DNA of 64,000 nt, taken from Sphingopyxis sp. USTB-05 (GTDB lineage Bacteria > Pseudomonadota > Alphaproteobacteria > Sphingomonadales > Sphingomonadaceae). The translations under genes were made by a program, and so were the position numbers. The stretch is taken from the NCBI RefSeq assembly GCF_023822045.1, contig NZ_CP084712.1:1426001-1490000 (forward strand), given 5' to 3'. How positions within the stretch are numbered: position 1 is the stretch's first letter; every line of letters starts with the position of its first letter. This document shows positions 3,316 to 38,407 of this stretch, piece by piece. The notes beneath the pieces are model-generated. The model was not told the DNA's origin. It made no database searches and worked only from the letters and a program-made list of their open reading frames with translations.

Positions 3316-3316
3316 G

Positions 3317-4579: not shown

Positions 4580-4837
4580 TCACTCCGGCTGGTCAAACTT
4601 GGCTTGCATTGGTCCAAAGCAAGAAGTGCAGGTCATTGATGGCTCCGATACTGCTCAAAGCCTGCGCCAGACGGCGCGTCATTCCTATCGTCAAAAACTA
4701 GGCTGGGATTTGCGTCATGAGTTTCGGCTAGGGAATAATCATAAGGGGAAAGCAGAACACGAAACTGGTTGGATGAAGGGGGAATGCCCCTGACATCCGC
4801 TTTGCTCCATAAGCGTGCCGGGCAGGATGGGGACAAG

Positions 4838-16765: not shown

Positions 16766-16774
16766 GGCGCCGCG

Positions 16775-16817: not shown

Positions 16818-16871
16818 ACGAAATTGCGTGGGCCGCCCTCGGTTCTTCCGGCTCTTCGTCGATGCGGGTTC

Positions 16872-18254: not shown

Positions 18255-19471
18255 TCCGCGCTGTTCCGGAGCGTGGCCTCATAGCATTCGACGAGCTTGG
18301 CTCCGACCGTTTCGACGGAAAAATGGCTGGCGCAATGATGTCCACCGTTCTCAGCCGCCCGTGCGGCCGCTTCCGGATAGTCGAACATCCAGACAAGCCG
18401 CTGCGCAAGCGCTTCAGGATCGCCGATCGGCGTCAGGAAGCCTGATTCCCCGTGCTGGATGATCTCGTCGCACCCAGGCCAATCGGTCGAGATCATCGGG
18501 CTGGCCGAGGCAAGCCCCTCAAGCAGGGCATAAGGAAAATTCTCCACCCGCGAGGCGAGGACAGTGACGAAGGCCTGCCGACGGAGCACGGCGATTTCGG
18601 AAGGCTTCAGCGTCCCGGTCAATTCGACGCGTCGTGCTGTTTCCGGTGAGAGGTTCGCACGCGCATATGCCTCGAAATCGGCGAGCTGCCCCGGGCCCGT
18701 CTCAATGCCGATCACCGGCCCGACCAGCGTCAACCTGGCATCGGGATGTTCACGCAGTAGCTGCTCGAAAGCCAGCAGCATGGTGTCGGCGCCCTTCCAA
18801 TAATCGAAGCGTCCGATCATCAGGATACGATTGCGATCACACGTTGCAAGGTTCCAGCGTTCGCTTTGGGCAGGCAGGCGAATGGGGTTCGGGATGACGG
18901 CGTCGCGTTCCCGAACCGGGCGCCGGTAATTCTCGCAGGTGACCTTCATCATCGCGCGGGTTGGTGCGGTCAACGTATGTGAAGTCCGCACCGCGCGTCC
19001 TTCGGTATGGCAACGCTGCAGGTCGTTCAGCTTGTCGCGAGCCGTTCGCGGCTTGGGAGGCTTCAGAAAGTGAGGGCCATGCAAACGCGTCACGACCGGA
19101 ATTCCGGTGAGGCGCTGCACCGTGTGCGACCAGCCGAAGCTTTCTTCCATTTCGAGGATGTCGATGGGGTCGGCGCGATGGGCTGCACTGACCTGCGCAG
19201 CCAGTTGCTGACCCAGGCGTGGCAAGCCGCCGTGATAAGTGTCTATGCGGCGGGAAATCCGCCGTTGCAGCCGACCGAATCCGCCGAGTGTCTCGATTGG
19301 CGCGAGCAGCGGCATGTCGACGCCATCACTCGGATAGCGTCGCCCTTCGGACAATATCGTGACCCTGTGCCCCTGGGCGATAAGGTATTCCCTTACCGTA
19401 GAGACATAGCTGACGATTCCGTTCGCTGCCCCCGCAGGCGGCCAATGAGGAGAGTAAAGTGCTACATGCAC
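18251..19471 (-). CDS. GT4-family glycosyltransferase
   Basis: The 406-aa GT-B enzyme starts VALYSPHWPPAGAANGIVSY, with the glycine-containing N-terminal loop typical of GT4. TRLHGPHFLKPP follows, then the donor half with ILMIGRFDYWKGAD, LVGPVIG and SRVENFPYALLEGLASASP (E-x7-E). It should act in EPS repeat-unit assembly. GTG 19471 has GGAG 9 nt upstream. It is divergent from the 2OG oxygenase gene at 19653, leaving a 181-bp region that must hold promoters for both directions. Confidence 0.88.
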   Translation of the reverse strand: MHVALYSPHWPPAGAANGIVSYVSTVREYLIAQGHRVTILSEGRRYPSDGVDMPLLAPIETLGGFGRLQRRISRRIDTYHGGLPRLGQQLAAQVSAAHRADPIDILEMEESFGWSHTVQRLTGIPVVTRLHGPHFLKPPKPRTARDKLNDLQRCHTEGRAVRTSHTLTAPTRAMMKVTCENYRRPVRERDAVIPNPIRLPAQSERWNLATCDRNRILMIGRFDYWKGADTMLLAFEQLLREHPDARLTLVGPVIGIETGPGQLADFEAYARANLSPETARRVELTGTLKPSEIAVLRRQAFVTVLASRVENFPYALLEGLASASPMISTDWPGCDEIIQHGESGFLTPIGDPEALAQRLVWMFDYPEAAARAAENGGHHCASHFSVETVGAKLVECYEATLRNSAE

Positions 19472-19652: not shown

Positions 19653-20477
19653 ATGCATGTACTCCGTTTAAAAGACCTGGGGGGATACCGGTGCTTCGAT
19701 GCTGAGCAGTGCCATGCTGCGGGCGTGTTGTGGGCGGAGACGTATCAAGCGAACCAGCCGTTTCCTCACATCGTTCTCGATGATTTTCTCGATCGCGATT
19801 TTTTGCGCGGCGTGGCTGAGGAGTTCCCGGACAATGGGGAACAGGACTGCTTCATGCGCGAGCAAGAGCGGCTGAAATTCCAGTTTCGACCTGACCAATG
19901 CGAAGGGCCGCTGACGCGAATGTTGTTCGCCGAGCTGAATTCGCGGGCGTTTATGTCGTTCCTTTCCGGGCTCACGGGCATCCAGGGGCTGATCCCCGAC
20001 CCCTATCACGCAGGCGCCGGGCTTCATGAAACCAAGCGTGGCGGTCATCTCAGCATCCATGCCGATTTTCCTCGGCACAAGGAAATGGGCGTGACGCGCC
20101 GGCTCAACCTGCTCATCTATCTGAACGACGATTGGCGCGACGAATTTGGCGGCGCGCTGGAGTTGTGGGACAAACGGATGCGGGCGGCCACGCAGCGGAT
20201 CATGCCGCTCTTCGGCCGTGCGGTAATCTTTTCCACGGATCGCGACACTTTTCATGGTCATCCCGATCCGTTGTCGTGCCCGGAAGACCGATCGCGACGT
20301 TCGATCGCAACCTATTATTACACGGCCGGCCTTGAACAGGACGATGGCCTGATCGAACGCACGACGGATTTCCGGCAACGGCCGGGCAGCGCTGACAAGC
20401 GCGATTGGCGAGTCCTGTTCCACCATCTCAAGGCCGACTGGTTGCCTCCGGCGCTGCAACGGCGAAAGAACGGATAA
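19653..20477 (+). CDS. prolyl-4-hydroxylase-like 2OG-Fe(II) oxygenase
   Basis: The 274-aa protein has the 2OG-FeII_Oxy fold signatures: HLSIHADFPRH (HxD), NLLIYLNDDWRDEFGGALELW, distal TFHGHPDP and RRSIATYYYT with the 2-oxoglutarate-binding Arg. The layout resembles sugar- or protein-hydroxylating family members often found near glycosyltransferase genes. It is the first gene of the plus-strand run leading to the NRPS-PKS and is followed by a GT2 after 39 bp. It could hydroxylate the NRPS-PKS product, its sugar or an EPS component. It is unrelated in motif spacing to the oxygenase at 6148-7113. Confidence 0.85.
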   Translation: MHVLRLKDLGGYRCFDAEQCHAAGVLWAETYQANQPFPHIVLDDFLDRDFLRGVAEEFPDNGEQDCFMREQERLKFQFRPDQCEGPLTRMLFAELNSRAFMSFLSGLTGIQGLIPDPYHAGAGLHETKRGGHLSIHADFPRHKEMGVTRRLNLLIYLNDDWRDEFGGALELWDKRMRAATQRIMPLFGRAVIFSTDRDTFHGHPDPLSCPEDRSRRSIATYYYTAGLEQDDGLIERTTDFRQRPGSADKRDWRVLFHHLKADWLPPALQRRKNG

Positions 20478-20516
20478 CGCCATGCGGAGGGGGGGACGCT
20501 TCGGAGGGGCAGGGCG

Positions 20517-21671
20517 ATGATAATCGCTTCGCTCTGTATCTGCGCCGCGGTGTTGGTGGCTTTTCTTGCGCTTCAATGCTTGCTGGGATCGGGCGCGCAG
20601 AAGTCCACATTGCTCCCAGAACGGGAAGGGCGGCCGCATTTCACGGTACTGATGCCCGCCCATGACGAGGCGGGAGGAATCGCCGCCGCCGTCCAGTCGA
20701 TATTGGATCAACTGGGCGAGGGCGACAGGTTGCTGGTCGTCGCCGACAATTGCAGCGACGATACGGCGCCTATCGCCCGAAGATTGGGCGCCGACGTCAT
20801 CGAACGCTTCGATTCGTCTTTGAGGGGCAAGGGACATGCGCTCGAGTTCGGTCGCGCCTTTCTCCGCGACCAGCCGAGCGATATCGTGATCATTGTCGAT
20901 GCGGATTGCCTTGCGGAGCCGGCCGCGCTCGCGAAACTCGCTTCTGCCGCCGCCATGGACGATGCGGTTGTGCAAGGCGCCTATCTTATGGCTCCGCCCA
21001 TCAACGCGTCGGCCCGGGTACGCATTTCCTGCTTCGCTTTCCTGATCAAGAACCTCGTTCGCCAGCGTGCCTTGCAACGCTTGGGCGGCTCGGCACTGCT
21101 TCAGGGATCGGGCATGGCCTTTCCGCGCCGGATTTTTGATGCGATCGAGTGGCGGGCGGCGTCGCTCGTCGAGGATCTCGATATGGGGCTCGATCTTCTG
21201 CTGGCCGGGGAACGCGTCACATTTGAGGAAGACGCGCTGTTCGTCAGCGCCGCGAGTTCCGAAAAGGGCACGGCCGGTCAGCGACGGCGCTGGGAACATG
21301 GCATGCTGCACTCCATGGGGCGCTATGTTCCCGCGCTGCTGGGGCGTGCGATCGGCGGGCGCTGGCGGCTCGCTCTCGTGGCTTTCGACCTGATGGTCCC
21401 CCCCACCGTCATGCTGCTCGTCGTCTCGCTGCTCCTGCTTGCGGTCGGAGTTGCGGTGCAGGGCGCGAGTCTTTCGGTTCTGCTTCTTGCACTCGCATTG
21501 GCCTTGCTCTGTCTGGGGCTTGCGCGAGCCTGGCGGGCAGAAGGCCGCGACATATTGCCGTTGCGAACTGTGGCGCAAATTCCGGCCTACATGCTCTGGA
21601 AGCTGCCGATCGCGGCACAGTTTCTTGTCCGCCGCGAAAAGCAATGGATACGCACGGAGCGCGAATCATGA
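20517..21671 (+). CDS. GT2 glycosyltransferase, membrane-bound cellulose-synthase-like
   Basis: The 384-aa protein has an N-terminal helix (residues 3-22), a GT-A domain (VLMPAHDEAGGI, VADNCSDDT, the metal-binding DAD in IIVDADC, the acid EDLDMG and QRRRWEHGM), then two or three C-terminal helices (about residues 295-345). The DxD, ED and QxxRW set marks a processive-type GT2 fold (BcsA/NodC/HasA-like), although single-addition relatives are common. The start follows a purine-rich GGGGCAGGGCG. Its stop overlaps the next GT2 by ATGA. Confidence 0.87.
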   Translation: MIIASLCICAAVLVAFLALQCLLGSGAQKSTLLPEREGRPHFTVLMPAHDEAGGIAAAVQSILDQLGEGDRLLVVADNCSDDTAPIARRLGADVIERFDSSLRGKGHALEFGRAFLRDQPSDIVIIVDADCLAEPAALAKLASAAAMDDAVVQGAYLMAPPINASARVRISCFAFLIKNLVRQRALQRLGGSALLQGSGMAFPRRIFDAIEWRAASLVEDLDMGLDLLLAGERVTFEEDALFVSAASSEKGTAGQRRRWEHGMLHSMGRYVPALLGRAIGGRWRLALVAFDLMVPPTVMLLVVSLLLLAVGVAVQGASLSVLLLALALALLCLGLARAWRAEGRDILPLRTVAQIPAYMLWKLPIAAQFLVRREKQWIRTERES

Positions 21672-22585
21672 CCAACACGAATGCCGCCGCCACGCGAACG
21701 GGCGAAGTCGGTTTCGTCATTATCGGTCGCAACGAGGGCAGTCGGCTGGTGACCTGCGTCGACAGCGTGCTGAGGGAGACGTCGCTCGCGATCTATGTCG
21801 ATTCCGGTTCGCATGACGGGAGCTGCGACTTTGCCCGCGGTCGCGGTCTGCCGGTCGTCGACCTGGACCGGGCCTTGCCCTTTACCGCTGCGCGGGCGCG
21901 CAACGCCGGGGCCAAGTGGATGATCGAGCATTATCCCGATCTGGAATATCTCCATTTTATCGACGGCGATTGCGAACTGGTCGCGGGCTGGCTGGACAAG
22001 GCGATGGACGCGATGCGGGCCGAGCCCGATCTGGCGTCGGTGTGCGGCCGTCGGCGCGAACGTTCGCCGGATGCCAGCCCCTATAATCAACTATGCGATC
22101 AGGAATGGAACACGCCCGTCGGTATCGCCGAAACCTGTGGCGGCGATGCGCTGTTTCGCGTCAAACCCTTCGTCGAGGTCGGCGGTTTTTCGGAGGATCT
22201 GATCGCGGGTGAAGAGCCCGATCTTTGTCATCGTATCCGGCTGAACCACTGGCGGATCCGCCGGATCGGTCATGACATGACGATCCACGACGCCGCGATG
22301 ACCGAGTTTCGGCAATGGTGGCAACGCAGCCGGCGCAGCGGCTATGCGACCGCGGAAGCCTATAGCCGCCGGGGCGAATATAATCCGCGACTGGGTCACC
22401 AGGTCGCGAGTAACCTCTTGTGGGCGCTCCCAATCTTCTGGCCGCTGTGGCCGCTGCTGTGGCTACGTGTCTATTTCAGCGGCGGAGCTTTGCAGGCCAG
22501 CTTCATCACGCTGGGCAAGCTCCCGCACCTGCAGGGCCAGATCGACTATTGGCGCAGGCGTCGCAGGCTGATCGAGTATAAATGA
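21668..22585 (+). CDS. GT2 glycosyltransferase
   Basis: The 305-aa enzyme has the GT-A start GFVIIGRNEGSRL, DSGSHDGSC, the metal site FIDGDCELV and FSEDLIAGEEPDLCHRIR near the acceptor site. A hydrophobic segment near the C terminus (LLWALPIFWPLWPLLWL) suggests membrane association. Coupled by ATGA to the preceding GT2. A gap of 111 bp with no clear terminator separates it from the NRPS gene, so it may be co-transcribed with it. Confidence 0.85.
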   Translation: MTNTNAAATRTGEVGFVIIGRNEGSRLVTCVDSVLRETSLAIYVDSGSHDGSCDFARGRGLPVVDLDRALPFTAARARNAGAKWMIEHYPDLEYLHFIDGDCELVAGWLDKAMDAMRAEPDLASVCGRRRERSPDASPYNQLCDQEWNTPVGIAETCGGDALFRVKPFVEVGGFSEDLIAGEEPDLCHRIRLNHWRIRRIGHDMTIHDAAMTEFRQWWQRSRRSGYATAEAYSRRGEYNPRLGHQVASNLLWALPIFWPLWPLLWLRVYFSGGALQASFITLGKLPHLQGQIDYWRRRRRLIEYK

Positions 22586-22696
22586 CCGGGGGTGTGATTT
22601 CGTCATTCCCCATTTTTACCACATGATTTGCCTACGGAGTTGTTGAAGTAGTTGCGCCCCCGCTTCCGCCCTACGATGTGCTCAAAGGAGAACATC

Positions 22697-25600
22697 ATGG
22701 CGGGACCGGCTCCGTCCAGCGAATCCAGCGTGCATCAGGGTAAGCAGCGCAGCATCCTCATCGGACGCGAAACCTTGCTTGGGGCATGTGGCGGGCTGCT
22801 GCTCGAGCAGCAGCACGAGATTGTCGCGGTCGTCGCACCCGAAGGGCCGGCTGCCGCCTGGGCGCGCCGCGCCGGCGTGCCCCTCTTTGGACGTTCGAAA
22901 GATTTGCTCGAGGCCGACCTCGGTCCGATCGACTATCTGTTCAGCATCACCAATCTGACCGTCTTGTCGCCGGATGTGCTTGCACTGGCGTCACGCGCCG
23001 CGATCAATTTCCACGATGGCCCGCTTCCGGCCTATGCCGGGCTCAACACGCCGAGCTGGGCGTTGCTGGAGGGCGAATCCGAACATGGCGTAACATGGCA
23101 TCTGATGACCGACGCGGTCGATTGCGGCGACATTCTGGCTAGCGAAACCCTTGCGATCGAAGACGGCGAAACGGCGCTGTCGTTGAACACCAAATGCTTC
23201 GAAGCGGGACTGCGGACTTTTGCAGCATTGGCTGAAGATTTGACGGCTGCGGTCGAGCGCCGCCAGCCCGTATCGAGCCCGCCGGAACGCTTCTACGGCA
23301 AGGAAGCACGCCCCGTCGCCGCCGCGACGATCGACTGGGACGCGCCTGCGCACGAAATTGCTCGCCGGGTTTCCGCGCTCGATTTCGGTGCCCATCGCAA
23401 CCCCCTTGGCGTTGCGAAGACATTGTTGGGCGATCGGTTGATCCTGGTACATGCTGCAACTGCGCTGGACCGGGCCAGCGGTGCAGCACCGGGGACCATC
23501 ATTGATGGCGGCGAGTCCCCAATTGTCGCCACGGGCAGCGGCGATATCCGACTGGATCGGCTGACCGATGCCGACGGCGGACCTCTGGCGTTCGCGCCTT
23601 TGTCCGCGGGCCAACGCTTCGAATCGATCGGCGGCGACCGCTTGGACACGCTTGGTACGCTGGACAGCGCCTCGGCGCACTACGAAGGCTGGTGGCATCG
23701 CCGGCTTGCCGGTCGCGATGCGCTGTTGCTCCCGCAGTTTCAGGCGAAAAGCGGTGATCGGTACGAGGCGCCCATCGTGTCGGACCGCAAGGCTCCCGCC
23801 GGACGGGTCCCGTCGGACCTGCTCGCGGCATGGGTTGCCTATCTGGGTCGCGTCGCGGACCGCGATACCGTGGATATCGGATATGTTGATCAGGTTTATC
23901 TGTCCCGGCTCGAGGATGTCGCGCCGTGGTTCGCCGATCAAATGCCGCTGCATGTTGCGATCGACTGGGGGCAACCGCTCGGCGTCTTTGCCGACCGATT
24001 GGCGAACGAGGTCGGCGCCATGCACAAGCGGATCGCGATCGCACGCGATCTGATCGCACGGATGCCGGACCTGCGCGGATCGGACGGCTTCGGCTTTCCC
24101 GTCTCCGTGCAGTTGGTCGATCGGCTCGATCAGGCCGTCTCCGCGCAGGGGACGGTACTCCATCTGGCCATTGCCGGCGATGGCAGCGGCTGCCGGTTGA
24201 TCCATGATCCGGCCCGGATCGACCATGCCGCGCTCGCGGATTTGTGGGTCGGGTTCGAAAGGATGCTGGCGGCGGCCGATGCCGCGCCCGAGACACCGGT
24301 CGGCCGCCTTTCGTTACTCGATGAGGCCGAATATCACCAGGTGATCCGGGTATGGAATGCCGAAGCGGGCGAAACCTCGACCGCGTCGGGCGTCCATCAC
24401 ATGATCGCGGACCAGGCGCGCCGGACTCCCGACAAGGTCGCAGTTACCGCGCGTGGTCGCAGCATGACCTATGCCGAACTCGACGCACGCGCGAATCGGC
24501 TCGCCCGTTATCTGCATGGTCTGGGTGTCCGGCCCAACGTCATGGTCGGCCTCAATGTCGAACGATCCGTCGAGCTCGCTATATGCGTGCTGGCGATCCA
24601 CAAGGCGGGCGGAGCCTATGTTCCGCTCGACCCCGCCTATCCGCGCGACCGCCTTGCGCACATGATCGCGGATTCGGGGATGCCGGTAATCGTCACCCAG
24701 TCGTCGTTGGTCGGCGACCTGCCCGCCGCCGGGGCGCATCTTGTGTGCATCGACCAGCTTGATGGCGAGCTCGCCATGCTGTCCGATGAAGCTTTCGACG
24801 GCGGTGCGACTGGCGAGGATCTCGTCTATGTCATCTACACCTCCGGTTCGACCGGCCTGCCGAAAGGCGTGATGATCGAGCACCGGCAACTCGTCAATTT
24901 CTTCGCAGGGATGGACCGGCAGCTCGAACCCGACGGGGTCTGGTTGGCGGTGACGAGCCTCAGCTTCGATATCTCGGTTCTCGAAATCTGCTGGCCGCTC
25001 ACGCGTGGCTATCATGTGGTGGTCGCTACAGAGCGTGAGGTGCGCGGCGATGTCGTATCGCGCGATGGAGGCAAGGCACCGGAATTCAGCCTCTTCTATT
25101 TTGCGAGCGCGGATGGCGCTAGCGCCGCCGACCACTATCGGCTGTTGATGGAGGGCGCGCGCTTTGCCGACGCCAATGGTTTCGAGGCGGTTTGGACGCC
25201 GGAACGCCATTTTCACGCCTTTGGCGGACCTTATCCCAATCCGGCCGTGATTTCCGCCGCGCTTGCGGCGTCGACTTCGCGGCTCAAGATTCGCGCGGGG
25301 AGCGTGGTCGCGACATTGCACCATCCGGCGCGGATTGCCGAGGAATGGGCGTTGGTCGACAATCTGTCGGGCGGCCGCGTCGGTATCGCTTTCGCCTCCG
25401 GATGGCAGCCGAACGACTTCGTGTTTGCTCCCGACAATTTCGCCGATCGCAACGGTGCGCTGAAGCGCAACATGGACGATGTCCGTGCGCTGTGGCGGGG
25501 CGAGGCGCGCAGCTTCCCGGGACCGCTCGGCGATGTCGAACTGATGACCTACCCGCGTCCGGTGCAGCCGGAACTTCCGGTGTGGATCACATCGGCCGGC

Positions 25601-27343: not shown

Positions 27344-27346
27344 TCG

Positions 27347-30300
27347 ATGGAACAGAATCACAGCTCCTTCGGTCCCACCAGCGAAGCGGATCTACCCGAG
27401 GCGGCAATCGCGATCGTGGGCATGTCGTGCCGGTTCGCCGACGCGCGGGGAATCGACGACTATTGGGATCTGCTTCAGGGTGGCCGCGAGGCGATCCGTA
27501 CCTATTCGGACGAGGAGCTGCTCGCAGCAGGGGTCAGTCCGGCGTCGCTGCGCAATCGCAACTATGTCCGCCGCGGCGCTCCGCTCGAAGATATGGAATG
27601 TTTCGACGCGACGCTGTTCGGAATGAGCCCGCGCGATGCGGCAATCATGGACCCGCAGCACCGCCATTTCCTGGAATGCACGTGGGAAGCGCTCGAAAAT
27701 GCCGGCTACACGCCGCAGCGTTTCGATGGCGTGGTCGGCGTCTTCGCCGGTTCGGGCCACAACGCCTATATGCCGTATAACCTGCTGACCAATTCCAAAC
27801 TGGTCCGCGACGTCGGCCTGTTCTTGTTGCGGCATACAAGCAACGACAAGGACTTCCTGACCACACGCGTCTCCTATCTGTTCGATCTCAAGGGGCCGAG
27901 CATCAACGTGCAGACCGCGTGCTCGACCTCGCTTGTTTCGATCCATATGGCGGCGCAGAGCCTGCTCAACGGCGAGTGCGACATGGCAATCGCCGGCGGT
28001 TCGTCGATCGAACTGCCGCACCGGCAGGGCTATATTTACGAGGAGGGCGAAATCCTGTCGCCCGACGGCCATTGCCGTCCCTTTGATGCGGCATCGCAGG
28101 GTACAGTATTCGGCAGCGGGGTCGCGGTGTTGGCGTTGCGGCGGCTCGAGGATGCGGTGGCGGCGGGCGATCATATCTATGCCGTGCTGCGCGGGTCGGC
28201 GATCAACAATGACGGCGCCGGCAAGGTCGGATATCTGGCTCCCAGCGTCGACGGGCAGGCCAAGGTGATTGCCGAAGCACTGGCGATCGCCGACATTGAT
28301 GCCGGCTCGATCAGCTATGTCGAGGCGCACGGTACCGGCACGCCGGTCGGTGATCCGATCGAGCTCGCTGCGCTGACCGAGGCCTTTCGTCAGTCCACCG
28401 ACAGCGTCGGTCATTGCGCCATCGGGTCGGTAAAGGGCAATATCGGGCATACCGACACGGCGGCCGGCGCTGCCGGGCTGATCAAGGTCGCGCTGGCGCT
28501 GCACAATGGAGAGCTGCCGGCTTCGCTCAATTTCGATGCGCCCAATCCGGCGCTGGGCTTGGAAGGCAGCCCGTTCCGCATCCAGGCCGAGCGCTCGCCC
28601 TGGACGACGTCGCCCGGCGGGGCACCCCGTCGGGCGGGAGTCAGTTCGCTCGGCGTGGGGGGCACGAACGCACATGTCGTGCTCGAAGAGGCGCCGCCGC
28701 GCCCGGCCAGCGGACCGAGCCGGCGTCGCCAGCTGCTTCTTTGCACCGCCAAATCGTCTGCCGCCTTGCAGGCGAACGCCGCCGCACTCGCCGACTTTAT
28801 CGAGACTCGCCCGCAAGCGGGTCTGCCCGATACGGCGTTCACGCTGTCGATCGGACGCCAGCACCTGCCGCAACGCCGCTTCGCCGTGGCGGCGTGCGGC
28901 GAGGAGGCGGCCGCCCGGCTTCGTGAGATCGCGGGGCAGGAGGTTTCGCAACCGAAGCCGGTCGCCGAGCGCCCGGTGGCGTTCCTCTTCTGCGGTGCCG
29001 GACCGCAACACGCCGACATGGCGCGCGGACTCTATGATACCGAACCGCTGTTCCGACAGGCTGTCGATGACGGTCTCGCCATTCTCGACCGGATCGGCGT
29101 GGCGAACGTACGGCGCTGGTTGTTGCCGAACGATTTGGACCGCGCGCAGGCGGCCGCCGAATTGGAGCGCCCATCGATCGCGCTTCCCGCATTGTTCATC
29201 ATCCAGACTGCGCTCGCGCGACTGTGGATGTCGGTCGGCGTCCAGCCGTCGGCGATGATCGGTCACAGCTCCGGCGAATATGCCGCCGCACATCTCGCAG
29301 GCGTGATCGACATGGAAGCGGGGCTGCGGATCGTGTCGACGCGCGGCCGGCTGTTCGAGACGGTTCGCGATGGCGGTATGCTGAGCGTGCCGCTTTCGGA
29401 GGCCGAACTGCTGCCGTTGTTGCCGCCGGAACTGTCGATCGCCGCGATCAATGCGCCCGGGCTTTGCGTCGTGTCCGGCCCGGCTGCCGCCATTGCGGGT
29501 TTCAACGACCTGCTTGCCGCGCGCGAGATCGAAGCGCAGGTCGTCCGTATTTCGGTCGCGGCACATTCGCCGATGCTCGACCCGATCCTGCCTGAGTTCC
29601 GCGCGCTGATGCGGACGATCGATCTTCGCGCGCCGACGATCCCCTTCGCTTCGAACCTGACGGGTGACTGGGCGACGGCGGCGGACGTCACCAATCCCGA
29701 ATATTGGGTGCGGCATCTGCGCGAGACCGTACGCTTCACCGACGGGCTGCACCGCCTGCTCGACGATCAGGAGAGGGCGCTTCTCGAAGTCGGTCCCGGC
29801 CGCGGGATGGCCAGCCTGGCGCGGCAACATCCCGACCGCGCGCGCGAGCAGCCGGTCATCAGTTCGATGCGGCACCCCGACCAGCGCATCGATGACGATG
29901 CGGCCTGGCTCGACGCGTTGGGACAGCTTTGGGCGGCGGGTGTCGAGATCGACTGGGACGCGTTCTGGCAGGACGAACAGCGCCTGCGCATTCCCTTGCC
30001 GACCTATCGGTTCGAGCGTCAGCGTCACTGGTATGACGCAGGTGCGCAGCTCGCCATGTCCGACGGGGCAGGGGACGCAGCGGACCGATCTGACGATCCC
30101 GCCGAATGGCAATATGAGCCCGTCTGGACGCGTTCCTATCTCGATGCCTCCGCGATGCCGGAAGGCGTGGCGCTGGTCATGGAGGATATGCGAGGGCTGG
30201 GGCGCGAGATTGCCCGTCGTCTGCGCGAAGCGGGACGGGAGGTCGTTGTCGTTCGTGCCGGCGATCGCTTCGGACGGCTGGGCGAGGGGCTGTTTTCGGT

Positions 30301-33300
30301 CAATCCTGCCAGCCAGGGCGATTATGGACGGCTTTTCGATTTGCTGGGCGCCGAAGGCCGCCTGCCGACGCAAATCTATCATTGCTGGCTGGTCACAGGG
30401 ACCGGCCGCAAGCAGCCCGATGTCCGCAGATTGCAGGACCTCGGCTTTTTCAGCCTGATTGCCTTGTCCCGCGAGCTAGCGCACCAGACCGGCGATGAGC
30501 CGGTCGATATCGCGATCCTGACCGATCGCGTGCAGCGGATCGGCGGCGACGGCAATCTGATGCCTGCCAAGGCGACGGTCGTGGGCGCCGCAAGCGTGGT
30601 TCCGGCCGAATATCCCCATCTTCGCATTCGGTGCGTCGATGTGGCTTTGCCGACACCAGATTCGGTTTCGGTGACCGCCGAAGCCGTGGTGAGCGAACTG
30701 GCAGCGGAGTGGCGCGACCGGGTGGTCGCCTATCGTGGCGGCGAGCGCTGGGTTCAGAAATTCAGCCAGATCCCACCGGCGCAGGCTGGATTGACGTCGC
30801 CTGCAGCCGCGCTTCGCCCAGGCGCTACCTATCTCGTGACCGGTGGACTCGGCGGACTCGGGCTCACGATCGCGCGGCATATTGCCGACCGCGGCGATGT
30901 CCGCATCGCGTTGCTGGGCCGGTCGGCATTGCCGCCGCGAGACAATTGGCCGGATATTCTGGCCGACGGAACCGCCGATCCTGCAATGCAGGACCGCATT
31001 CGTAAGGTGATGGGGCTGGAAGCGTCCGGCGCAACCGTGGAAGTTGTCGCCGCCGACGTCGGCAATGCGCGCGCGATGCGTGATGCCATACGCCGGATCA
31101 CGGCAAAACTCGGGCCGGTGACGGGCGTTTTCCACGCTGCCGGTGCGCTGGACGATGGCCTCATCGAAACCAAATCGCATGCGGCGATGGCGGCCGTCCT
31201 ACGTCCAAAGGTGGCCGGCACATTGGCGCTGGAAGACGCATTGGCGGGGCAGAAGCCCGAATTCATCATGCTGTTCTCCTCGATCAGTGCGTTTGCCGGC
31301 TTGCCGGGCCAGGCGGACTATGCGGCCGCCAATGCGTTTCTCGATGCCTATGCACAGTCGCGCCACGGGGTGGGCGGTACGCGCGTCCTGGCTGTTGACT
31401 GGAGCCCGTGGCGCGAGGTCGGAATGGCAGCGGCGCTGGATAGCCGCCCGGACGACGGGCTCGCCGATCAATTGCCTGAGGGCAAGGCCGTCGACCACCC
31501 GTTCCTCGACAGCCTGCATATCATTTCGCCCGACGAGTTCGTCGTTTCGGCGATGCTGTCGCCGGACCGGCATTGGCTGCTCGACGAACATCGGATCGCC
31601 GGGGCGGGCGCCGTTATTCCGGGCACGGGCTTTCTCGAACTTGCGCGCGCCTCTTACAGTCTCGTTCATTCGGGAATGGTTGTGCTGTCGGACGTCCGGT
31701 TCCTGACGCCATTCGCGGTCGAGGACGGTCAGGCCCGCGCCGTGCGGGTCCATCTGAAACGCCGCGTCGGCGAAGATTGGGGCTTCACGATTCTGGGCCG
31801 ACCGGCGGATGCCGCGTCGAATTGGATCGAGCACGCCAGCGGTCAGGTGTCTGCACCAAATTTGCTGGCGGTTCCGGATCCTATGGACATCGAAGGGCTT
31901 GAACGGCGTTGTCCGCGCGTGATCGACGGCAAGGAGGCCTCCAGCGTGGCGCTCCAGTTCGGTCCGCGCTGGTCGACCGTCCAGCGTACTGCCTACGCCG
32001 AAAATGAGGCGGTGTTGCACCTGGAGATGGACCCTGCATTCCATGAGGAGTTCGCTCGGGTGCACCTGCATCCCGCCTTGCTCGACTTCGCCACCGCGGG
32101 CGCGCAGGCGCTGATTCCCGATTATCGGCCGGGCCAGGATTTCTTCGCGCCATTCGCCTATCGGCGGCTAGTGATGCACGCGCCGCTGACTCCATCGGTC
32201 GTCAGCCATATCCGGCATCGGTCCGGAGCGCACGCCAATGTCATGGCCGTGTTCGATGTGACGATTGCCGACCAGAATGGCCGGGTGCTGGCTGAAATCG
32301 CTGAATTCACCATGATGCGCGTGCGTGACACGGGCCTGTTGCCACAAGGCGGCAATGGTGCGGCGTCGTCGAGCCGAGAGGCGACTGGTGCTCTGGCAGA
32401 GCGCGTCAATGCCATCCTGCCCGAGGAAGGCATCAAGGTTATCGAAGCACTGCTTCATGGGCATGCGCGTCCGCAGGTGATCATATCGCCTTCGGATATC
32501 GATGCCGCGCTTACACAGCTACGCGCACCCGTGCGAGCGGTGCGGCGCGATATCTCGGCGGACGGCGAGGCTTCCGTCGATCTGCCCGTGACGGCGATGG
32601 AACAGGTGATCGCCGATCTATGGTCCGACTTGCTGGGCGTGCAGCCGATAGGCCGCAATGACAATTTCTTCGACCTTGGCGGCCATTCATTGCTTGCGGT
32701 GCAATTCACCAACCGGCTCCGCAAAAAGACCGGCAAGATGCTGCCGCTCGCATCCTTGCTCGATATGCCGACGGTGGCGTCGCTCGCTGCCGAACTCGAC
32801 CCGGATGGTGCGGCCTCCACACCCGATTGCGATGAGGCAGCCGATGTCGGCAAGGCCACCACGCGTGAGGTCGTGAACATCCGGAGCGGTGGCAGCGGCA
32901 CGCCGATCTTCTTCGTCCACGACGGTTTGGGCGAAACATTGCTCTATCGGGGGCTTGCTCTTCGGCTCGATCCGGACCGGCCGATCTATGGCATCGAGCC
33001 ACTCAGAAACTCTGCGGGCGGCTACGCCCACACGCATATTCGCGAGATGGCGACGAACTATGTCGAGCGTATCCGAATGGTCCAGTCGCACGGCCCCTAT
33101 TATCTCGCGGGGCTATGCGCCGGCGGCGTCATAGCGTTCGAAATCGCCCGCCAGTTGCAGGATGCGGGTGAGCGGGTCGCCTTTGTCGGGATCATCGACG
33201 CGGCCGACGTGGCGGCGGCGAAACGGCGCTTCTACATCACCCGGGCACGATTTGGCCGGGTGCAGGCGCTGATGCAGGACGAAGGCGCCGCAAGGCTGGT

Positions 33301-33808
33301 CCCGGCACTGGCACGCAAGACGGTCAACGCCGTCCGGTGGGAAGTCGAATCGCGCGCGGCAAAGGCGCGCGACCGGCGCGCCGTAAGGCAATTGGGCGCG
33401 GTCAATGCCGCGCAGTCATCTGTCAGCGAACGGACGGACAGCGAACCGGCAATCCCGTTCTTGAAACTTTATGAGGTGGCGCACACGCTTCATCGGCCAG
33501 AGGGCCTTTTTGCGGACGGCAGCGTCGTGATCTTTAAGGCGAGCGGCGGAAATGGGGAAGTTGACGACATGCCCTATCAGGAAATCTACAGCGACGTTGC
33601 GCTAGGCTGGGGGAAACGGGTGGCCGAACCGGTCACGCTCGTTCAGGTCCCGGGCGGACACAGCAGCGCCTTGCAGGAACCGCATGTCGGCATATTGGCC
33701 CGTCATTTCCAATATGCCCTCGACGGCGCGGCGGAGCGGGCCGACCGGAGCAATCCCGGTGATCAACAGGACCCGAACGGCGGGCGAGATATGGTGGCGG
33801 CAGAATGA
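27347..33808 (+). CDS. type I PKS module KS-AT-KR-DH-ACP-TE
   Basis: The 2153-aa protein begins at ATG 27347 (GAGGAG upstream). Domains: KS, about 18-450, with Cys192 (TACSTS), His328 (EAHGTGT) and His368 (KGNIGH); AT, about 545-860, with Ser641 (GHSSGEY); KR, about 1010-1375, with GGLGGLG near 1164, Tyr1325 and an LDD motif indicating B-type stereochemistry; DH, about 1385-1650, with His1415 and Asp1580 (HPALLDF); ACP with Ser1781; TE, about 1840-2125, with a Cys nucleophile, C1924 (GLCAGG), and His2105. All catalytic residues checked are present. DH follows KR, opposite to the usual bacterial order, and the DH His motif has one extra residue before the Pro. AT specificity (VAAHSP where malonyl types often read HAFH) is unclear; malonyl is assumed. 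It should extend the NRPS product, reduce, dehydrate and release it. The stop overlaps the next GT2 by ATGA. Confidence 0.92.
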   Translation: MEQNHSSFGPTSEADLPEAAIAIVGMSCRFADARGIDDYWDLLQGGREAIRTYSDEELLAAGVSPASLRNRNYVRRGAPLEDMECFDATLFGMSPRDAAIMDPQHRHFLECTWEALENAGYTPQRFDGVVGVFAGSGHNAYMPYNLLTNSKLVRDVGLFLLRHTSNDKDFLTTRVSYLFDLKGPSINVQTACSTSLVSIHMAAQSLLNGECDMAIAGGSSIELPHRQGYIYEEGEILSPDGHCRPFDAASQGTVFGSGVAVLALRRLEDAVAAGDHIYAVLRGSAINNDGAGKVGYLAPSVDGQAKVIAEALAIADIDAGSISYVEAHGTGTPVGDPIELAALTEAFRQSTDSVGHCAIGSVKGNIGHTDTAAGAAGLIKVALALHNGELPASLNFDAPNPALGLEGSPFRIQAERSPWTTSPGGAPRRAGVSSLGVGGTNAHVVLEEAPPRPASGPSRRRQLLLCTAKSSAALQANAAALADFIETRPQAGLPDTAFTLSIGRQHLPQRRFAVAACGEEAAARLREIAGQEVSQPKPVAERPVAFLFCGAGPQHADMARGLYDTEPLFRQAVDDGLAILDRIGVANVRRWLLPNDLDRAQAAAELERPSIALPALFIIQTALARLWMSVGVQPSAMIGHSSGEYAAAHLAGVIDMEAGLRIVSTRGRLFETVRDGGMLSVPLSEAELLPLLPPELSIAAINAPGLCVVSGPAAAIAGFNDLLAAREIEAQVVRISVAAHSPMLDPILPEFRALMRTIDLRAPTIPFASNLTGDWATAADVTNPEYWVRHLRETVRFTDGLHRLLDDQERALLEVGPGRGMASLARQHPDRAREQPVISSMRHPDQRIDDDAAWLDALGQLWAAGVEIDWDAFWQDEQRLRIPLPTYRFERQRHWYDAGAQLAMSDGAGDAADRSDDPAEWQYEPVWTRSYLDASAMPEGVALVMEDMRGLGREIARRLREAGREVVVVRAGDRFGRLGEGLFSVNPASQGDYGRLFDLLGAEGRLPTQIYHCWLVTGTGRKQPDVRRLQDLGFFSLIALSRELAHQTGDEPVDIAILTDRVQRIGGDGNLMPAKATVVGAASVVPAEYPHLRIRCVDVALPTPDSVSVTAEAVVSELAAEWRDRVVAYRGGERWVQKFSQIPPAQAGLTSPAAALRPGATYLVTGGLGGLGLTIARHIADRGDVRIALLGRSALPPRDNWPDILADGTADPAMQDRIRKVMGLEASGATVEVVAADVGNARAMRDAIRRITAKLGPVTGVFHAAGALDDGLIETKSHAAMAAVLRPKVAGTLALEDALAGQKPEFIMLFSSISAFAGLPGQADYAAANAFLDAYAQSRHGVGGTRVLAVDWSPWREVGMAAALDSRPDDGLADQLPEGKAVDHPFLDSLHIISPDEFVVSAMLSPDRHWLLDEHRIAGAGAVIPGTGFLELARASYSLVHSGMVVLSDVRFLTPFAVEDGQARAVRVHLKRRVGEDWGFTILGRPADAASNWIEHASGQVSAPNLLAVPDPMDIEGLERRCPRVIDGKEASSVALQFGPRWSTVQRTAYAENEAVLHLEMDPAFHEEFARVHLHPALLDFATAGAQALIPDYRPGQDFFAPFAYRRLVMHAPLTPSVVSHIRHRSGAHANVMAVFDVTIADQNGRVLAEIAEFTMMRVRDTGLLPQGGNGAASSSREATGALAERVNAILPEEGIKVIEALLHGHARPQVIISPSDIDAALTQLRAPVRAVRRDISADGEASVDLPVTAMEQVIADLWSDLLGVQPIGRNDNFFDLGGHSLLAVQFTNRLRKKTGKMLPLASLLDMPTVASLAAELDPDGAASTPDCDEAADVGKATTREVVNIRSGGSGTPIFFVHDGLGETLLYRGLALRLDPDRPIYGIEPLRNSAGGYAHTHIREMATNYVERIRMVQSHGPYYLAGLCAGGVIAFEIARQLQDAGERVAFVGIIDAADVAAAKRRFYITRARFGRVQALMQDEGAARLVPALARKTVNAVRWEVESRAAKARDRRAVRQLGAVNAAQSSVSERTDSEPAIPFLKLYEVAHTLHRPEGLFADGSVVIFKASGGNGEVDDMPYQEIYSDVALGWGKRVAEPVTLVQVPGGHSSALQEPHVGILARHFQYALDGAAERADRSNPGDQQDPNGGRDMVAAE

Positions 33809-34788
33809 GCACGAACAATCGAAACCCCCAAGCGACGGTCGATGTCATTGTCGTCAACTACCGCACCGGCACGCTCGTAACGCAATGCCTCGAAAGCCTC
33901 GAGGCGGATCGGGAAGATTGCCCGGGCCTGCGCGTGATCGTCATCGACAATGCATCGAACGATGGCTCGGCCGACCTGATCGAGGAAGTAATCCGGGCGC
34001 GCAACTGGGATTGGGTCACGCTGATGCGATCCCCCGAAAACCGGGGTTTCGGTGCAGGCAGCAATCTGGGCATCGCCTGGGCGCTGGATCGACCCGATCC
34101 AGCCGATCTCGTCTGGCTTCTCAATCCCGATACGCGGGTGATGCCCGGCGCCGCGAGCGCATTGGCGCGCTTCATGGCCGCTCATCCCAAGGCGGGAATC
34201 GCCGGTAGCGCGTTACTCGACGCCGACGGCCAGCCCTGGCCCTATGCCTTTCGTTTTCCCAGCCTGCTCGGCGAAATCGAGCGGGGATCCCGCCTGAATC
34301 TGGTATCCCGGCTGCTGCGCGGGAGCGCCACGCTACGCCGGATGGGATCGCGCAGCGAGAAAGTCGATTGGGTTTCTGGCGCCAGTTTCATCATCCGCCG
34401 CGAGTTGCTCGAAGACGACATGCGGTTCGACGAGGAATATTTCCTCTATTATGAGGAAACCGATTTCTGCCTCCACGCGACGCGCAGGGGATGGGAATGC
34501 TGGTACGTCCCCGATGCGGTGGTGTTGCACATCGCGGGCCAGAGTACAGGCATCACCGGCAAGCAGATCAGGTTGCGCCGCCTTCCGGCCTATTGGTTTC
34601 ATTCCCGCCGGCGCTACTTCCTCAAAAATCACGGACGCGTTTACGGCATTCTGGCTGATTTCAGTTGGATCGTCGCGCATGTCCTTGCGCGTTTCAAGCA
34701 GCTCGTCAGAAAAGTGGCCGAGCCAGACCCGCCCTATCTGTTCCAGGATTTTATTCGTCACGCGGCTTTTCTGCCTCGGCGTCGCTGA
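33805..34788 (+). CDS. GT2 glycosyltransferase (WbbL/rhamnosyltransferase-like)
   Basis: The 327-aa GT-A protein has VIVVNYRTGTLV, VIDNASNDGSAD, ENRGFGAGSNLGI, LLNPDTRV (DxD-like), WVSGASFIIRRE and DEEYFLYYEETDFCLHATRRG, all typical of WbbL-like enzymes. It lacks strong membrane helices. It overlaps the PKS stop by ATGA and is followed by the phosphopantetheinyl transferase after 13 bp, so it belongs to the NRPS-PKS operon. That placement argues it glycosylates the NRPS-PKS product or joins it to a glycan; the substrate is inference. Confidence 0.88.
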   Translation: MSTNNRNPQATVDVIVVNYRTGTLVTQCLESLEADREDCPGLRVIVIDNASNDGSADLIEEVIRARNWDWVTLMRSPENRGFGAGSNLGIAWALDRPDPADLVWLLNPDTRVMPGAASALARFMAAHPKAGIAGSALLDADGQPWPYAFRFPSLLGEIERGSRLNLVSRLLRGSATLRRMGSRSEKVDWVSGASFIIRRELLEDDMRFDEEYFLYYEETDFCLHATRRGWECWYVPDAVVLHIAGQSTGITGKQIRLRRLPAYWFHSRRRYFLKNHGRVYGILADFSWIVAHVLARFKQLVRKVAEPDPPYLFQDFIRHAAFLPRRR

Positions 34789-34801
34789 TCGTCACCGTCC
34801 G

Positions 34802-35512
34802 ATGGTCGCGAAAACTGTGCTGGAATTTGACGCCGCGCTATGCGGGCAGGGGCTCGACGCGCGACGTTTGCCGTCAACGGCCAGCGGCTTTCCGATGTGG
34901 CTTGTCGATACCGAGCAAAGCAATGTCGAAGCCTTCGAGCATCTGCTGTCGAGCGAAGAGATGGAAACGGCAAATCGCTTCCGCTTTCGCGCGTTGCGTC
35001 ACCGTTATATCGCCGCCCACGGAGCGTTACATATGCTGTTGCGGGATCGCTACGGCGTCCCGGCCGACGCTTGGGACATCGGCAAGGACAGCTTTGGAAA
35101 GCCGCATCTGATTCGGTTCCCACAGATACACTATAGTCTGAGCTATAGTGGTGGCTTTGCGATGCTGGGCATAAATGAGAGCGAGCCCGTCGGCGTCGAT
35201 ATCGAGGTTCTTCGGACCGTCGAAGATGCGGCCGAACTGATGGATCTGCATTTTACCGAGGCAGAGCAATCCGTGGCCATGCGAACGAGTTCGCCGGATG
35301 CCTGCTACTCCAAGGAGTTTTTAGAGATATGGGTCCGCAAAGAGGCCTGCGTGAAGGCTTGCGGACGTGGCTTGAGCATTCCGTTGAAAGATGTGGAATG
35401 CGTATCTGAAGACCAAGTGACGACGGTGCAGTTCGGTGGAGGCCGTTACCGCACCGGCGCCCTAGAATTGGGCGACCCGATTATGGCTTGGTCTCGTCGT
35501 ACAAGCCTGTAA
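34802..35512 (+). CDS. 4'-phosphopantetheinyl transferase (Sfp/HetI type)
   Basis: The 236-aa protein has the Sfp-type signatures: GKPHLIRFPQIHYSLSYSGG (about residues 97-118), the metal-binding GVDIE (about 130) and WVRKEACVKACGRGL (about 177). It transfers the phosphopantetheine arm of CoA to the Ser of carrier domains, here Ser1476 of the NRPS and Ser1781 of the PKS. Its operonic position, 13 bp after the GT2, supports a dedicated activating role. ATG 34802 lacks a strong Shine-Dalgarno. Confidence 0.93.
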   Translation: MVAKTVLEFDAALCGQGLDARRLPSTASGFPMWLVDTEQSNVEAFEHLLSSEEMETANRFRFRALRHRYIAAHGALHMLLRDRYGVPADAWDIGKDSFGKPHLIRFPQIHYSLSYSGGFAMLGINESEPVGVDIEVLRTVEDAAELMDLHFTEAEQSVAMRTSSPDACYSKEFLEIWVRKEACVKACGRGLSIPLKDVECVSEDQVTTVQFGGGRYRTGALELGDPIMAWSRRTSL

Positions 35513-35519
35513 TCCCATT

Positions 35520-35536
35520 TGCGCTCTCCCAGCGCA
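35520..35536. terminator. hairpin between convergent PPTase and LuxR-type genes
   Basis: TGCGCT (35520-35525) and AGCGCA (35531-35536) form a perfect 6-bp stem with a 5-nt loop in the 29-bp convergent gap. There is only a short T-run before it, so it is a weak bidirectional terminator candidate. Confidence 0.3.
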
Positions 35537-35541
35537 TCTGG

Positions 35542-35799
35542 TTAGTGAGCAGCTGCTGCGCCAATGTCGGTTGTATACCGTTCTTGGGGTAGCAGCCCTT
35601 CCCTGATCACATGAGCGATCAGATGTGCGCGGTTTCGCGTTCTTGTCTTGAGACGAACGTTTTCGACATGACGTTCAACCGTGCACGGTGCGATGTCCAG
35701 TTCCAAGGCCGCTTCTTTGGCGGAAAGTCCAAGGGCTACGAGACGAAGCACCTCATATTCGCGATCTGTAAGTCTGATTCCTTCCGTATATTTGGACAT
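35542..35799 (-). CDS. small LuxR/GerE-type HTH protein
   Basis: The 85-aa protein is almost entirely a LuxR-type helix-turn-helix: LTDREYEVLRLVALGLSAKE, IAPCTVERHVENVRLKT and LIAHVIREGLL (residues 10-70). No receiver or autoinducer domain is attached, so it resembles GerE-like stand-alone regulators. It converges on the NRPS-PKS-GT-PPTase operon and is the most likely local regulator (inference). GGGAGGG lies just upstream of ATG 35799. Confidence 0.85.
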   Translation of the reverse strand: MSKYTEGIRLTDREYEVLRLVALGLSAKEAALELDIAPCTVERHVENVRLKTRTRNRAHLIAHVIREGLLPQERYTTDIGAAAAH

Positions 35800-38024: not shown

Positions 38025-38407
38025 GCTTCGCTCAAGCCCCTGATCCCGGGAAGGCAAATGGCGTTGCGGAGTGCTAACGCGCCCGCCCGGCTATTCTTCC
38101 CACGAAAAAGGTGACACAAGCCGGCGGGCTCCGATATCCCGAAAAAACCAAAGGGAATTGCAGGAACTCCACGAGGATTCGTCTCATTCTGACGACCGAA
38201 AAACGGGCCGCACAAGGATAGACCTCCCGCGACGGTATCGACCGAAAGAAATCCCGCCAAATATCGGGTAATTTGCACAATCAAAAATAGGCAGTTCAAA
38301 GTGCCAATGGACCGCGGAACGCCCAGGATATATGGCTGTTCAGAATGCGGCACCCGATCGTCAATCGCTGCTGATGTCCCCGGATGTCGGCGGAGCGAGG
38401 GATTAAC
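38025..38407. other. 383-bp divergent intergenic region
   Basis: It separates the minus-strand VirK-like gene and the plus-strand methyltransferase gene, so it should carry promoters in both directions. No additional coding region, RNA gene or clear repeat was found. The GC content falls in the middle (around 38240-38300). Confidence 0.4.

What the first reader, a model, noticed from the sequence alone, without database searches (positions are those of the whole stretch)
19653..35799. NRPS-PKS operon with glycosyltransferases, oxygenase and PPTase inside an EPS locus: candidate undescribed glyco-conjugated metabolite system
A plus-strand run combines a 2OG oxygenase, two GT2 enzymes, a formylating/oxygenating NRPS, a one-module PKS with TE, a third GT2 overlapping the PKS stop, and a PPTase. 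All lie directly beside a full Wzx/Wzy EPS locus. The overlaps (PKS/GT2 ATGA; 3-bp NRPS/PKS gap) show that GT and assembly line are made together. Known EPS modifications are mostly acetyl, pyruvyl or succinyl; an acyl unit made by an NRPS-PKS and joined to sugar would be new to me. I could equally be seeing a separate glycosylated metabolite cluster.
Basis: partly seen in the sequence, partly recalled or inferred. Interest (0 to 1): 0.85.

Follow-up and report, generated by a model that had tools for sequence, protein, structure and literature searches.

The report
Assembly line built into exopolysaccharide locus
A bacterium's gene cluster for its sticky outer sugar coat contains a small peptide-polyketide assembly line, and the same pairing recurs in many related bacteria, which suggests that the coat carries an unusual non-sugar building block.

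Summary
Window 19653-35512 encodes a 2OG oxygenase, two GT2s, an NRPS (formyltransferase, Gly-type A domain with an inserted luciferase-like monooxygenase, PCP), a one-module PKS (KS-AT-KR-DH-ACP-TE), a third GT2 and a PPTase. It abuts a complete Wzx/Wzy EPS locus (1936-19471). Of 46 alphaproteobacterial loci of the same NRPS lineage, 44 carry at least two EPS core gene kinds nearby; 0 of 10 control regions do. In 248 genomes of one Rhodobacteraceae-like family 84 match the NRPS. One Wzy-like polymerase family occurs in 77 of those 84 but in 10 of the 164 others. In the window's genus (80 genomes) its Wzy occurs in two, both with the PKS. Best reading: the NRPS-PKS makes a short glycine-derived acyl unit that becomes part of the EPS repeat. 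Chemistry and linkage are inferred, not shown. Some deeper relatives lie away from EPS genes, and the window's PKS groups differently from its NRPS. RkpA/WcbR capsule PKSs are the nearest precedent; ten searches of an open-licence library listed no description of this pairing. A new variant of a known kind.

The parts
1936..3570 (-). initiating sugar transferase (PHPT, PF02397)
   Evidence: Pfam E 4e-65
4769..6139 (+). GT4 glycosyltransferase
   Evidence: Pfam
7218..8057 (-). CpsD/CapB-type P-loop ATPase
   Evidence: Pfam ParA E 4e-7; CpsD label is my reading
7993..9498 (-). Wzz chain-length determinant
   Evidence: Pfam PF02706
9495..10667 (-). outer-membrane beta-barrel protein
   Evidence: Pfam PF13505 just over its cut-off
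10648..11313 (-). Wza-type polysaccharide export protein
   Evidence: Pfam PF02563
11495..12367 (+). WecG/TagA/CpsF glycosyltransferase; the only PF03808 match in the genome
   Evidence: Pfam; genome search
12364..13524 (+). SGNH-like protein, lipoprotein-like N-terminus by eye; homologues in related loci
   Evidence: no Pfam hit over its cut-off (a homologue to DUF4886 E 0.0014); G74, S76, D279, H282 (numbered from the open frame at 12313) invariant in 28 aligned rows, window included; 4-bp overlap with WecG
13521..15194 (+). hydrolase-like protein of unknown family (start at 13521 likely; ORF opens at 13440)
   Evidence: 26 hits in the fetched loci, itself included; no Pfam or PDB hit; the hydrolase label is my reading of the sequence
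15194..16765 (+). Wzy polymerase / O-antigen ligase family (ORF opens at 15038)
   Evidence: Pfam PF04932 E 1e-11; found in 2 of 80 genus genomes, both with the PKS
16872..18254 (-). Wzx flippase
   Evidence: Pfam PF13440 E 1e-46
18251..19471 (-). GT4 glycosyltransferase
   Evidence: Pfam
19653..20477 (+). 2OG-Fe(II) oxygenase
   Evidence: Pfam PF13640; also in the G054 locus and one annotated in the Ruegeria conchae locus
20517..21671 (+). GT2, EpsU-like by NCBIfam but far below its cut-off
21644..22585 (+). GT2; homologues in many related EPS loci
22697..27343 (+). NRPS: formyltransferase - degenerate C-like stretch - A (code DILQMGMIWK) split by luciferase-like monooxygenase - PCP
   Evidence: Pfam finds no condensation domain, the C-like label is my reading
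27347..33808 (+). PKS: KS-AT-KR-DH-ACP-TE
   Evidence: active-site motifs
33805..34788 (+). GT2 coupled to the PKS; a GT2 matching its profile lies within 400 bp of the PKS in 37 of 46 loci
34802..35512 (+). 4'-phosphopantetheinyl transferase
   Evidence: Pfam PF01648 E 3e-14
35542..35799 (-). small LuxR-type HTH protein, possible regulator
   Evidence: Pfam GerE

Best explanation
The NRPS-PKS is a working part of a Wzx/Wzy exopolysaccharide pathway and makes a short non-sugar unit that is put on the lipid-linked repeat unit before flipping and polymerisation. Steps: the PPTase charges both carrier proteins. The A domain loads glycine on the PCP (inferred from its code). The formyltransferase formylates it and the inserted flavin monooxygenase hydroxylates the alpha carbon (inferred from family). 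By analogy with MOX modules this may stay as N-formyl-alpha-hydroxyglycyl or break to a glyoxylyl thioester. The PKS adds one malonate-type unit, reduces and perhaps dehydrates it, giving a C4-sized acyl chain, and the TE releases it. The coupled GT2s and possibly the 2OG oxygenase and the SGNH-like protein join it to, or modify, the sugar intermediate (least certain step). Wzx flips, Wzy polymerises and Wza/Wzz/CpsD export the product. Shown here: gene content, conserved catalytic motifs, conserved neighbourhood, co-occurrence with one polymerase family. Inferred: substrate, chemistry, point of attachment.
For: Motifs: FT N/H/D in 51 of 60 NRPS rows, PCP Ser in 59 of 60, A code DILQ-x-GMIWK in 52 of 60 rows. 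PMC12283262 (passages) gives DILQLGMIWK for four Gly-activating domains with MOX; 14 rows are identical, the window differs at position 299. Neighbourhood: 44 of 46 loci of the NRPS lineage have two or more EPS core gene kinds, 0 of 10 control regions have any; leaving out the 8 loci that gave profile seeds, 37 of 38. Co-occurrence in 248 genomes: both 77, NRPS only 7, Wzy only 10, neither 154; of the 77, 60 within 30 kb, 4 on one contig but further apart, 13 on different contigs. Own genus: window Wzy in 2 of 80 genomes, both with the PKS. PF03808 (WecG): a copy in the NRPS locus in 19 of 20 chosen genomes; in 13 of the 14 genomes with a single copy that copy is in the locus. Gene order differs between orders, so linkage was kept through rearrangement. 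None of the 5 AT3 acyltransferase matches of the genome lies in the window. Among the genes scanned in window 1-40.8 kb the only exporters seen are Wzx and Wza.
Against: No product, mutant or EPS structure is known. Neighbourhood does not show chemistry. Deeper relatives with a like NRPS lie away from EPS genes as far as scanned (G421; Planctomycete L014, no PKS beside it; Aliiroseovarius L037). In the PKS tree the window's lineage groups with Gemmatimonas and Deinococcus, not with the Rhizobiales/Rhodobacterales set as in the NRPS tree, and its TE has Cys in the place of Ser, so its chemistry may differ. PMC12283262 places MOX insertions between motifs A8 and A9, while here the insertion lies between the FDxS and NxYGPTE motifs, so the analogy is loose. 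Rhizobiales PKSs have an altered KR motif. Ten genomes have the Wzy-like family without an NRPS match and 7 the reverse. Counts are not corrected for shared ancestry, and the 46 loci are not a random sample.
Confidence: 0.65

Rival explanations
1. The NRPS-PKS makes a lipid-like or primer molecule needed once per chain (carrier, anchor or end group of the polysaccharide), as has been thought for RkpA/WcbR-type capsule PKSs (recalled), rather than a group on every repeat.
For: A dedicated type I PKS gene in capsule loci is known (rkpA/wcbR, PMC3908369 passages). The same locus and co-occurrence data fit it.
Against: One elongation module plus a glycine loader gives a short polar unit, not a lipid, unless the PKS is iterative. 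The tie to one polymerase family is expected if the unit is part of the repeat that Wzy recognises, less so for an end group.
Confidence: 0.16
2. A separate small glycosylated metabolite (toxin, siderophore or signal) whose cluster happens to sit beside EPS genes.
For: Like enzymes serve free metabolites elsewhere: fabrubactins are proposed to use a flavin-dependent monooxygenase, FbnE (PMC12971057 passages; not compared by sequence), and deeper relatives exist without EPS neighbours.
Against: 44 of 46 loci with EPS genes and the polymerase co-occurrence. No dedicated exporter or resistance gene was seen among the genes scanned beside it.
Confidence: 0.14
3. Linkage without function: both sets ride on the same mobile island or plasmid.
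For: Relatives are found on plasmids and the set is rare in the window's genus (3 of 80).
Against: Linkage persists in three orders with different gene orders, and the two halves co-occur in 4 genomes where they are over 50 kb apart on one contig. Translational coupling of GT2 to PKS.
Confidence: 0.05

Closest known systems
RkpA/WcbR-type PKS of rhizobial and Burkholderia capsule (K-antigen) loci
   Same: A type I PKS gene is a standing member of a surface-polysaccharide locus (PMC3908369 passages).
   Different: Here the PKS has a TE and a formylating NRPS partner and lies in a Wzx/Wzy locus; no capsule ABC-export gene was seen among the scanned genes. No sequence comparison with RkpA was made.
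Promonan EPS pathway of Sphingomonas sp. LM7 (PMC11340318, section 11 and passages)
   Same: Same list of assembly genes: PHPT, outer-membrane beta-barrel, Wza, Wzz, CpsD/CapB, WecG, Wzx, Wzy, GT2s, glycoside hydrolases; an acyltransferase (PrmO, OafA family) is needed for EPS.
   Different: The paper's text names no NRPS and 'polyketide' occurs only in its references; the window has no AT3 gene, so the NRPS-PKS could stand where PrmO stands. No sequence comparison made.
MOX-containing Gly modules (myxothiazol/melithiazol type; recalled) and the MupA/Atu3671 monooxygenase family TIGR04020
   Same: Monooxygenase inserted in a Gly-type A domain, code alike; TIGR04020 491 bits.
   Different: Those are chain-terminal modules that leave an amide (recalled); here the module starts the chain and carries a formyltransferase, and the insertion site differs from the one given in PMC12283262.
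Linear gramicidin synthetase LgrA initiation module
   Same: Formyltransferase-A-PCP start module (recalled); LgrA is the best PDB match.
   Different: LgrA has no monooxygenase, makes a long peptide and is not tied to polysaccharide (recalled).

Membership tests
Wzx/Wzy-dependent EPS locus | initiating PHPT, Wzx, Wzy, Wza, Wzz/CpsD and GTs together | tested here: met
MupA/Atu3671 monooxygenase domain family (TIGR04020) | monooxygenase domain over the curated cut-off | tested here: met
   491 bits, cut-off 244
MOX Gly module | Gly-type A-domain code DILQLGMIWK | tested here: inconclusive
   window DILQMGMIWK, one position off; 14 of 60 rows identical; code from PMC12283262; activity not tested
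MOX Gly module | insertion between motifs A8 and A9 as PMC12283262 puts it | tested here: not met
   insertion lies between the FDxS and NxYGPTE motifs; passage
Formylating start module (LgrA-like) | FT with N, H, D catalytic residues and no working upstream C domain | tested here: met
   NHD in the window and 51 of 60 rows, no HHxxxDG in the window; triad and motif recalled
RkpA/WcbR capsule PKS | PKS in an rkp/wcb locus with that type of capsule export | tested here: not met
   Wzx/Wzy locus instead; no sequence tree with RkpA was made
Promonan pathway | prm gene set including the PrmO acyltransferase | tested here: not met
   assembly genes alike by name, but no AT3 match in the window
Fabrubactin-type siderophore cluster | chelator-forming and siderophore-uptake genes | tested here: inconclusive
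   no uptake gene among the genes scanned in window 1-40.8 kb; FbnE not compared; 40.8-64 kb not scanned
Holdfast/UPP-type adhesin pathway | WecG able to replace HfsJ | not testable with these tools
   needs complementation; PMC11340318 reports it for P. inhibens WecG and not for Sphingomonas PrmH

The most novel reading that the evidence does not exclude
A class of alphaproteobacterial exopolysaccharides, its genes matched in about a third of the sampled genomes of the Rhodobacteraceae-like family, carries in each repeat a small acyl residue built by a dedicated formyl-Gly/monooxygenase NRPS plus one PKS module. The formyl group may serve only as a leaving group, so that the NRPS turns glycine into a glyoxylyl starter. 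The matching polymerase depends on this residue, and in roseobacters the product may be the polar, holdfast-like adhesin, since the locus holds the only WecG-family enzyme in 13 of 20 genomes examined.
Probability: 0.3. Interest if true: 0.88.

Novelty: new variant of a known kind. Interest (0 to 1): 0.74.

Why it matters
Known EPS decorations are mostly acetyl, pyruvyl, succinyl or single amino acids (recalled). A conserved assembly line inside Wzx/Wzy loci would join natural-product enzymology to biofilm polymer chemistry. It could recast some NRPS-PKS clusters of marine bacteria, noted in genome papers as secondary-metabolite genes (for instance PMC11225332 and PMC4062626, passages; not shown to be this set), as polysaccharide genes. 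It would also give a handle on adhesion in common marine and soil bacteria.

Tried and rejected
Little return: a one-sequence AlphaFold model of the SGNH-like protein (mean pLDDT 33.6, not used, no fold search made). PDB search with the hydrolase-like protein (no hit). Ten paper searches: searches found no paper; of the others I saw titles and starts of abstracts, only part of the list (20 of 88; 10 of 54; 12 of 278), and none of those seen described this set. The fabrubactin paper is not held.

Considered and dropped: using the deeper lineages as an EPS-free control. My narrow profiles found at most one core marker in each of 11 such loci (Deinococcus had itself given a seed), but Pfam or annotation then showed polysaccharide genes beside four of them: Methylobacterium L023 (Wzz-type protein and GT4; aminotransferase), G766 (UDP-glucose dehydrogenase, two AT3, polysaccharide lyase), Gemmatimonas L016 (UDP-glucose dehydrogenase, polysaccharide deacetylase) and Deinococcus L024 (annotation). 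So the profiles undercount, and that contrast is not used. A Phaeobacter inhibens PKS/NRPS pair (Inhi_1972 and Inhi_1974, PMC4062626) looks like this set by numbering, but its sequence was not examined and the numbers given for strain DSM 17395 do not clearly agree.

Rows dropped: the NRPS tree left out G728, G728xx, G728xxx and Plancto_L015, the PKS tree left out RhizobiumBG6. The 57 loci scanned are the window, 2 genus hits, the 6 other class-sample hits, the 10 further phylum-sample hits, 20 of the family-sample hits picked from the listing by score and contig before their neighbours were seen, 15 of the first 18 listed plasmid hits (H3, H4, H8 not opened) and L014-L016; 46 of them are the alphaproteobacterial clade. 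Of the 10 control regions, 7 are from genomes of that clade and 3 from G362, G766, G728. One search uses one NRPS and one Wzy position per genome, and some of the 84 NRPS matches are partial. I take the 248 genomes to be the same draw, from their handles.
Full report
What is there. The window is 1426001-1490000 of a one-contig 4.68 Mb genome; the nearest named relatives found are Sphingopyxis MAGs. The reported genes are all present with open frames. The NRPS reads as a start module: formyltransferase with N119, H121 and D157; a stretch that I read as the C-terminal half of a condensation domain (Pfam finds none; no HHxxxDG motif); an A domain interrupted between its FDxS and NxYGPTE motifs by a luciferase-like monooxygenase (TIGR04020, 491 bits against a cut-off of 244); and a PCP. 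The PKS reads KS-AT-KR-DH-ACP-TE. GT2 33805-34788 overlaps the PKS stop by 4 bp, and the PPTase follows 13 bp later. The NRPS start is better placed at 22697, behind AAGGAG.

The EPS locus beside it has a PF02397 initiating transferase, GT4, CpsD-like ATPase, Wzz, outer-membrane beta-barrel, Wza, WecG, Wzy, Wzx and a second GT4. WecG, an SGNH-like protein, a hydrolase-like protein and Wzy overlap one another by 1-4 bases if the later starts are used. The SGNH label rests on invariant G-x-S and D-x-x-H positions in 28 aligned rows and a weak DUF4886 match of a homologue; a one-sequence structure model failed.

How widespread. With a nine-row NRPS profile, matches at E <= 1e-250 occur in 7 of 385 genomes of the class sample and 16 of 398 of the phylum sample. 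Both counts include the window's own genome, and five further genomes are in both. Two of the 16 (G766, G728) match without the formyltransferase part. In the family of G410, which I take to be Rhodobacteraceae because like loci on named plasmids are from Ruegeria, Paracoccus and Parasedimentitalea, 84 of 248 genomes match, some of them in part. In the window's genus the PKS is in 3 of 80. On plasmids, 17 records hold a place covering at least 80% of the NRPS; 15 hits were opened, of which four carry no usable gene table and were read from their DNA.

Is it tied to EPS genes? I built profiles from annotated neighbours and scanned 57 loci and 10 control regions taken 0.4-1 Mb away in ten of the sampled genomes. 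Of 46 loci in the alphaproteobacterial NRPS clade, 44 hold two or more kinds of EPS core gene (Wzx, Wza, Wzy, CpsD, sugar transferase, WecG). The two exceptions are an 11.7 kb contig (G068) and Ruegeria 43209, which has a sugar transferase by profile and other polysaccharide genes by annotation. None of the 10 controls has any. Eight loci of the clade supplied profile seeds; without them the count is 37 of 38. A GT2 matching the profile of P0006 lies in 43 of the 46 loci and within 400 bp of the PKS in 37; a PPTase is found in 40. Gene order varies: NRPS-PKS-GT2-PPTase in the window, PKS-GT2-NRPS-PPTase in most Rhodobacterales seen, divergent PKS and NRPS in the Rhizobiales loci.

Co-occurrence is the strongest result. 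The Wzy-like protein near the PKS in Rhodobacterales (Pfam Wzy_C E 1e-4, under its cut-off) was sought in the 248 genomes. Both present 77, NRPS only 7, Wzy only 10, neither 154; Fisher p = 4e-44, not corrected for ancestry. Of the 77, 60 lie within 30 kb, 4 are 50-416 kb apart on one contig and 13 are on different contigs, where some assemblies are fragmented. With only Wzy matches of 420 bits or more the table is 75, 9, 3, 161. In the window's genus the window's Wzy occurs in 2 of 80 genomes, both with the PKS; the third PKS genome is a fragmented assembly. A WecG-family match lies in the NRPS locus in 19 of 20 chosen genomes, and in 13 of the 14 genomes with one copy that copy is the one in the locus; G752 is the exception. 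Wzy polymerases recognise their repeat unit (established knowledge), so the tie suggests that the NRPS-PKS product is part of the repeat.

What it might make. The A-domain code read by motif is DILQMGMIWK; DILQ-x-G-M-I/V-W-K holds in 56 of 60 rows. PMC12283262 (passages) reports DILQLGMIWK for four Gly-activating domains with MOX and says that MOX cleaves the Gly backbone; it places such insertions between motifs A8 and A9, which is not where this one lies. I infer formyl-glycine, alpha-hydroxylated, either kept or split to glyoxylyl, then one extension with reduction and perhaps dehydration. The AT motif does not settle the extender. The TE of the window's lineage has GLCAGG, most others GFSGGG or similar; a Cys nucleophile might favour transfer over hydrolysis. 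The Rhizobiales PKSs have a changed KR cofactor motif, so the unit may differ between groups. The chemistry in this paragraph is inference.

Phylogeny. In the NRPS tree (midpoint root) the window's lineage is sister to the Rhizobiales plus Rhodobacterales clade (support 1.0). In the PKS tree it groups with Gemmatimonas and Deinococcus (0.997), next to that clade. So the two genes may have separate histories in Sphingopyxis, or the deep branches are poorly resolved. Deeper relatives are mixed: polysaccharide genes near Methylobacterium, G766, Gemmatimonas and Deinococcus; none among 10 proteins scanned near G421 and 10 near Planctomycete L014; near Aliiroseovarius only a GT2 about 16 kb off and an exosortase by annotation. 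G362, G740, G728 and Planctomycete L015 were scanned with the narrow profiles only.

Known relatives. The nearest functional precedent is RkpA/WcbR, a type I PKS in rhizobial and Burkholderia capsule loci (PMC3908369, passages). The nearest EPS pathway by gene list is promonan of Sphingomonas LM7 (PMC11340318; section 11 and passages), where an OafA-type acyltransferase, PrmO, is needed for EPS and is proposed to act on a lipid-linked intermediate; the window has no AT3 gene. The same paper reports that the WecG of Phaeobacter inhibens can replace HfsJ of the Caulobacter holdfast pathway while PrmH cannot, which makes a holdfast-like role in roseobacters a lead, not a result. Ten searches of an open-licence paper library listed nothing, among the entries shown, that describes an NRPS-PKS as a regular part of EPS loci; most subscription papers are not in that library.

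Verdict. The EPS reading is favoured; the chemistry is open.

Noticed in passing
window 27347-33808 (TE near residue 1920 of the PKS): The TE nucleophile motif is GLCAGG (Cys) in the window, G054 and G068, while most other PKSs aligned have a Ser motif such as GFSGGG.
   Followed up: partly
L021 1-1485, L022 781-4659, L036 1-2405, L038 781-4659: Paracoccus loci carry a second NRPS directly before WecG in the same EPS locus.
   Followed up: no
L017, L018, L032, L034 and G701 (Rhizobiales-type loci): The KR cofactor motif of the PKS is changed (TGGLGDLA, SGGLSEIA and like), so ketoreduction may be lost there.
   Followed up: no
L022 20108-24699: In Paracoccus marcusii CP157 the formyltransferase and the rest of the NRPS are annotated as two overlapping genes, so the gene looks broken or split.
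   Followed up: no
L120 7081-8163 (G766): The SGNH-like protein also stands directly beside the PKS in G766, with AT3 acyltransferases and a polysaccharide lyase nearby.
   Followed up: partly
G851 merged stretch 21931-24570 and like frames: The hydrolase-like and SGNH-like profiles both match one long open frame in several genomes, next to a separate SGNH-like gene in some.
   Followed up: no
window 37002-38057; L018 8402-9511: Among the 57 loci scanned a DUF535 protein was matched only in Sphingopyxis (window, G054) and the two Shinella loci.
   Followed up: no
L014 15631-17594: A Planctomycete has the NRPS without a PKS beside it, near two proteins that match the PEP-CTERM sorting motif, one of them under the cut-off.
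   Followed up: no
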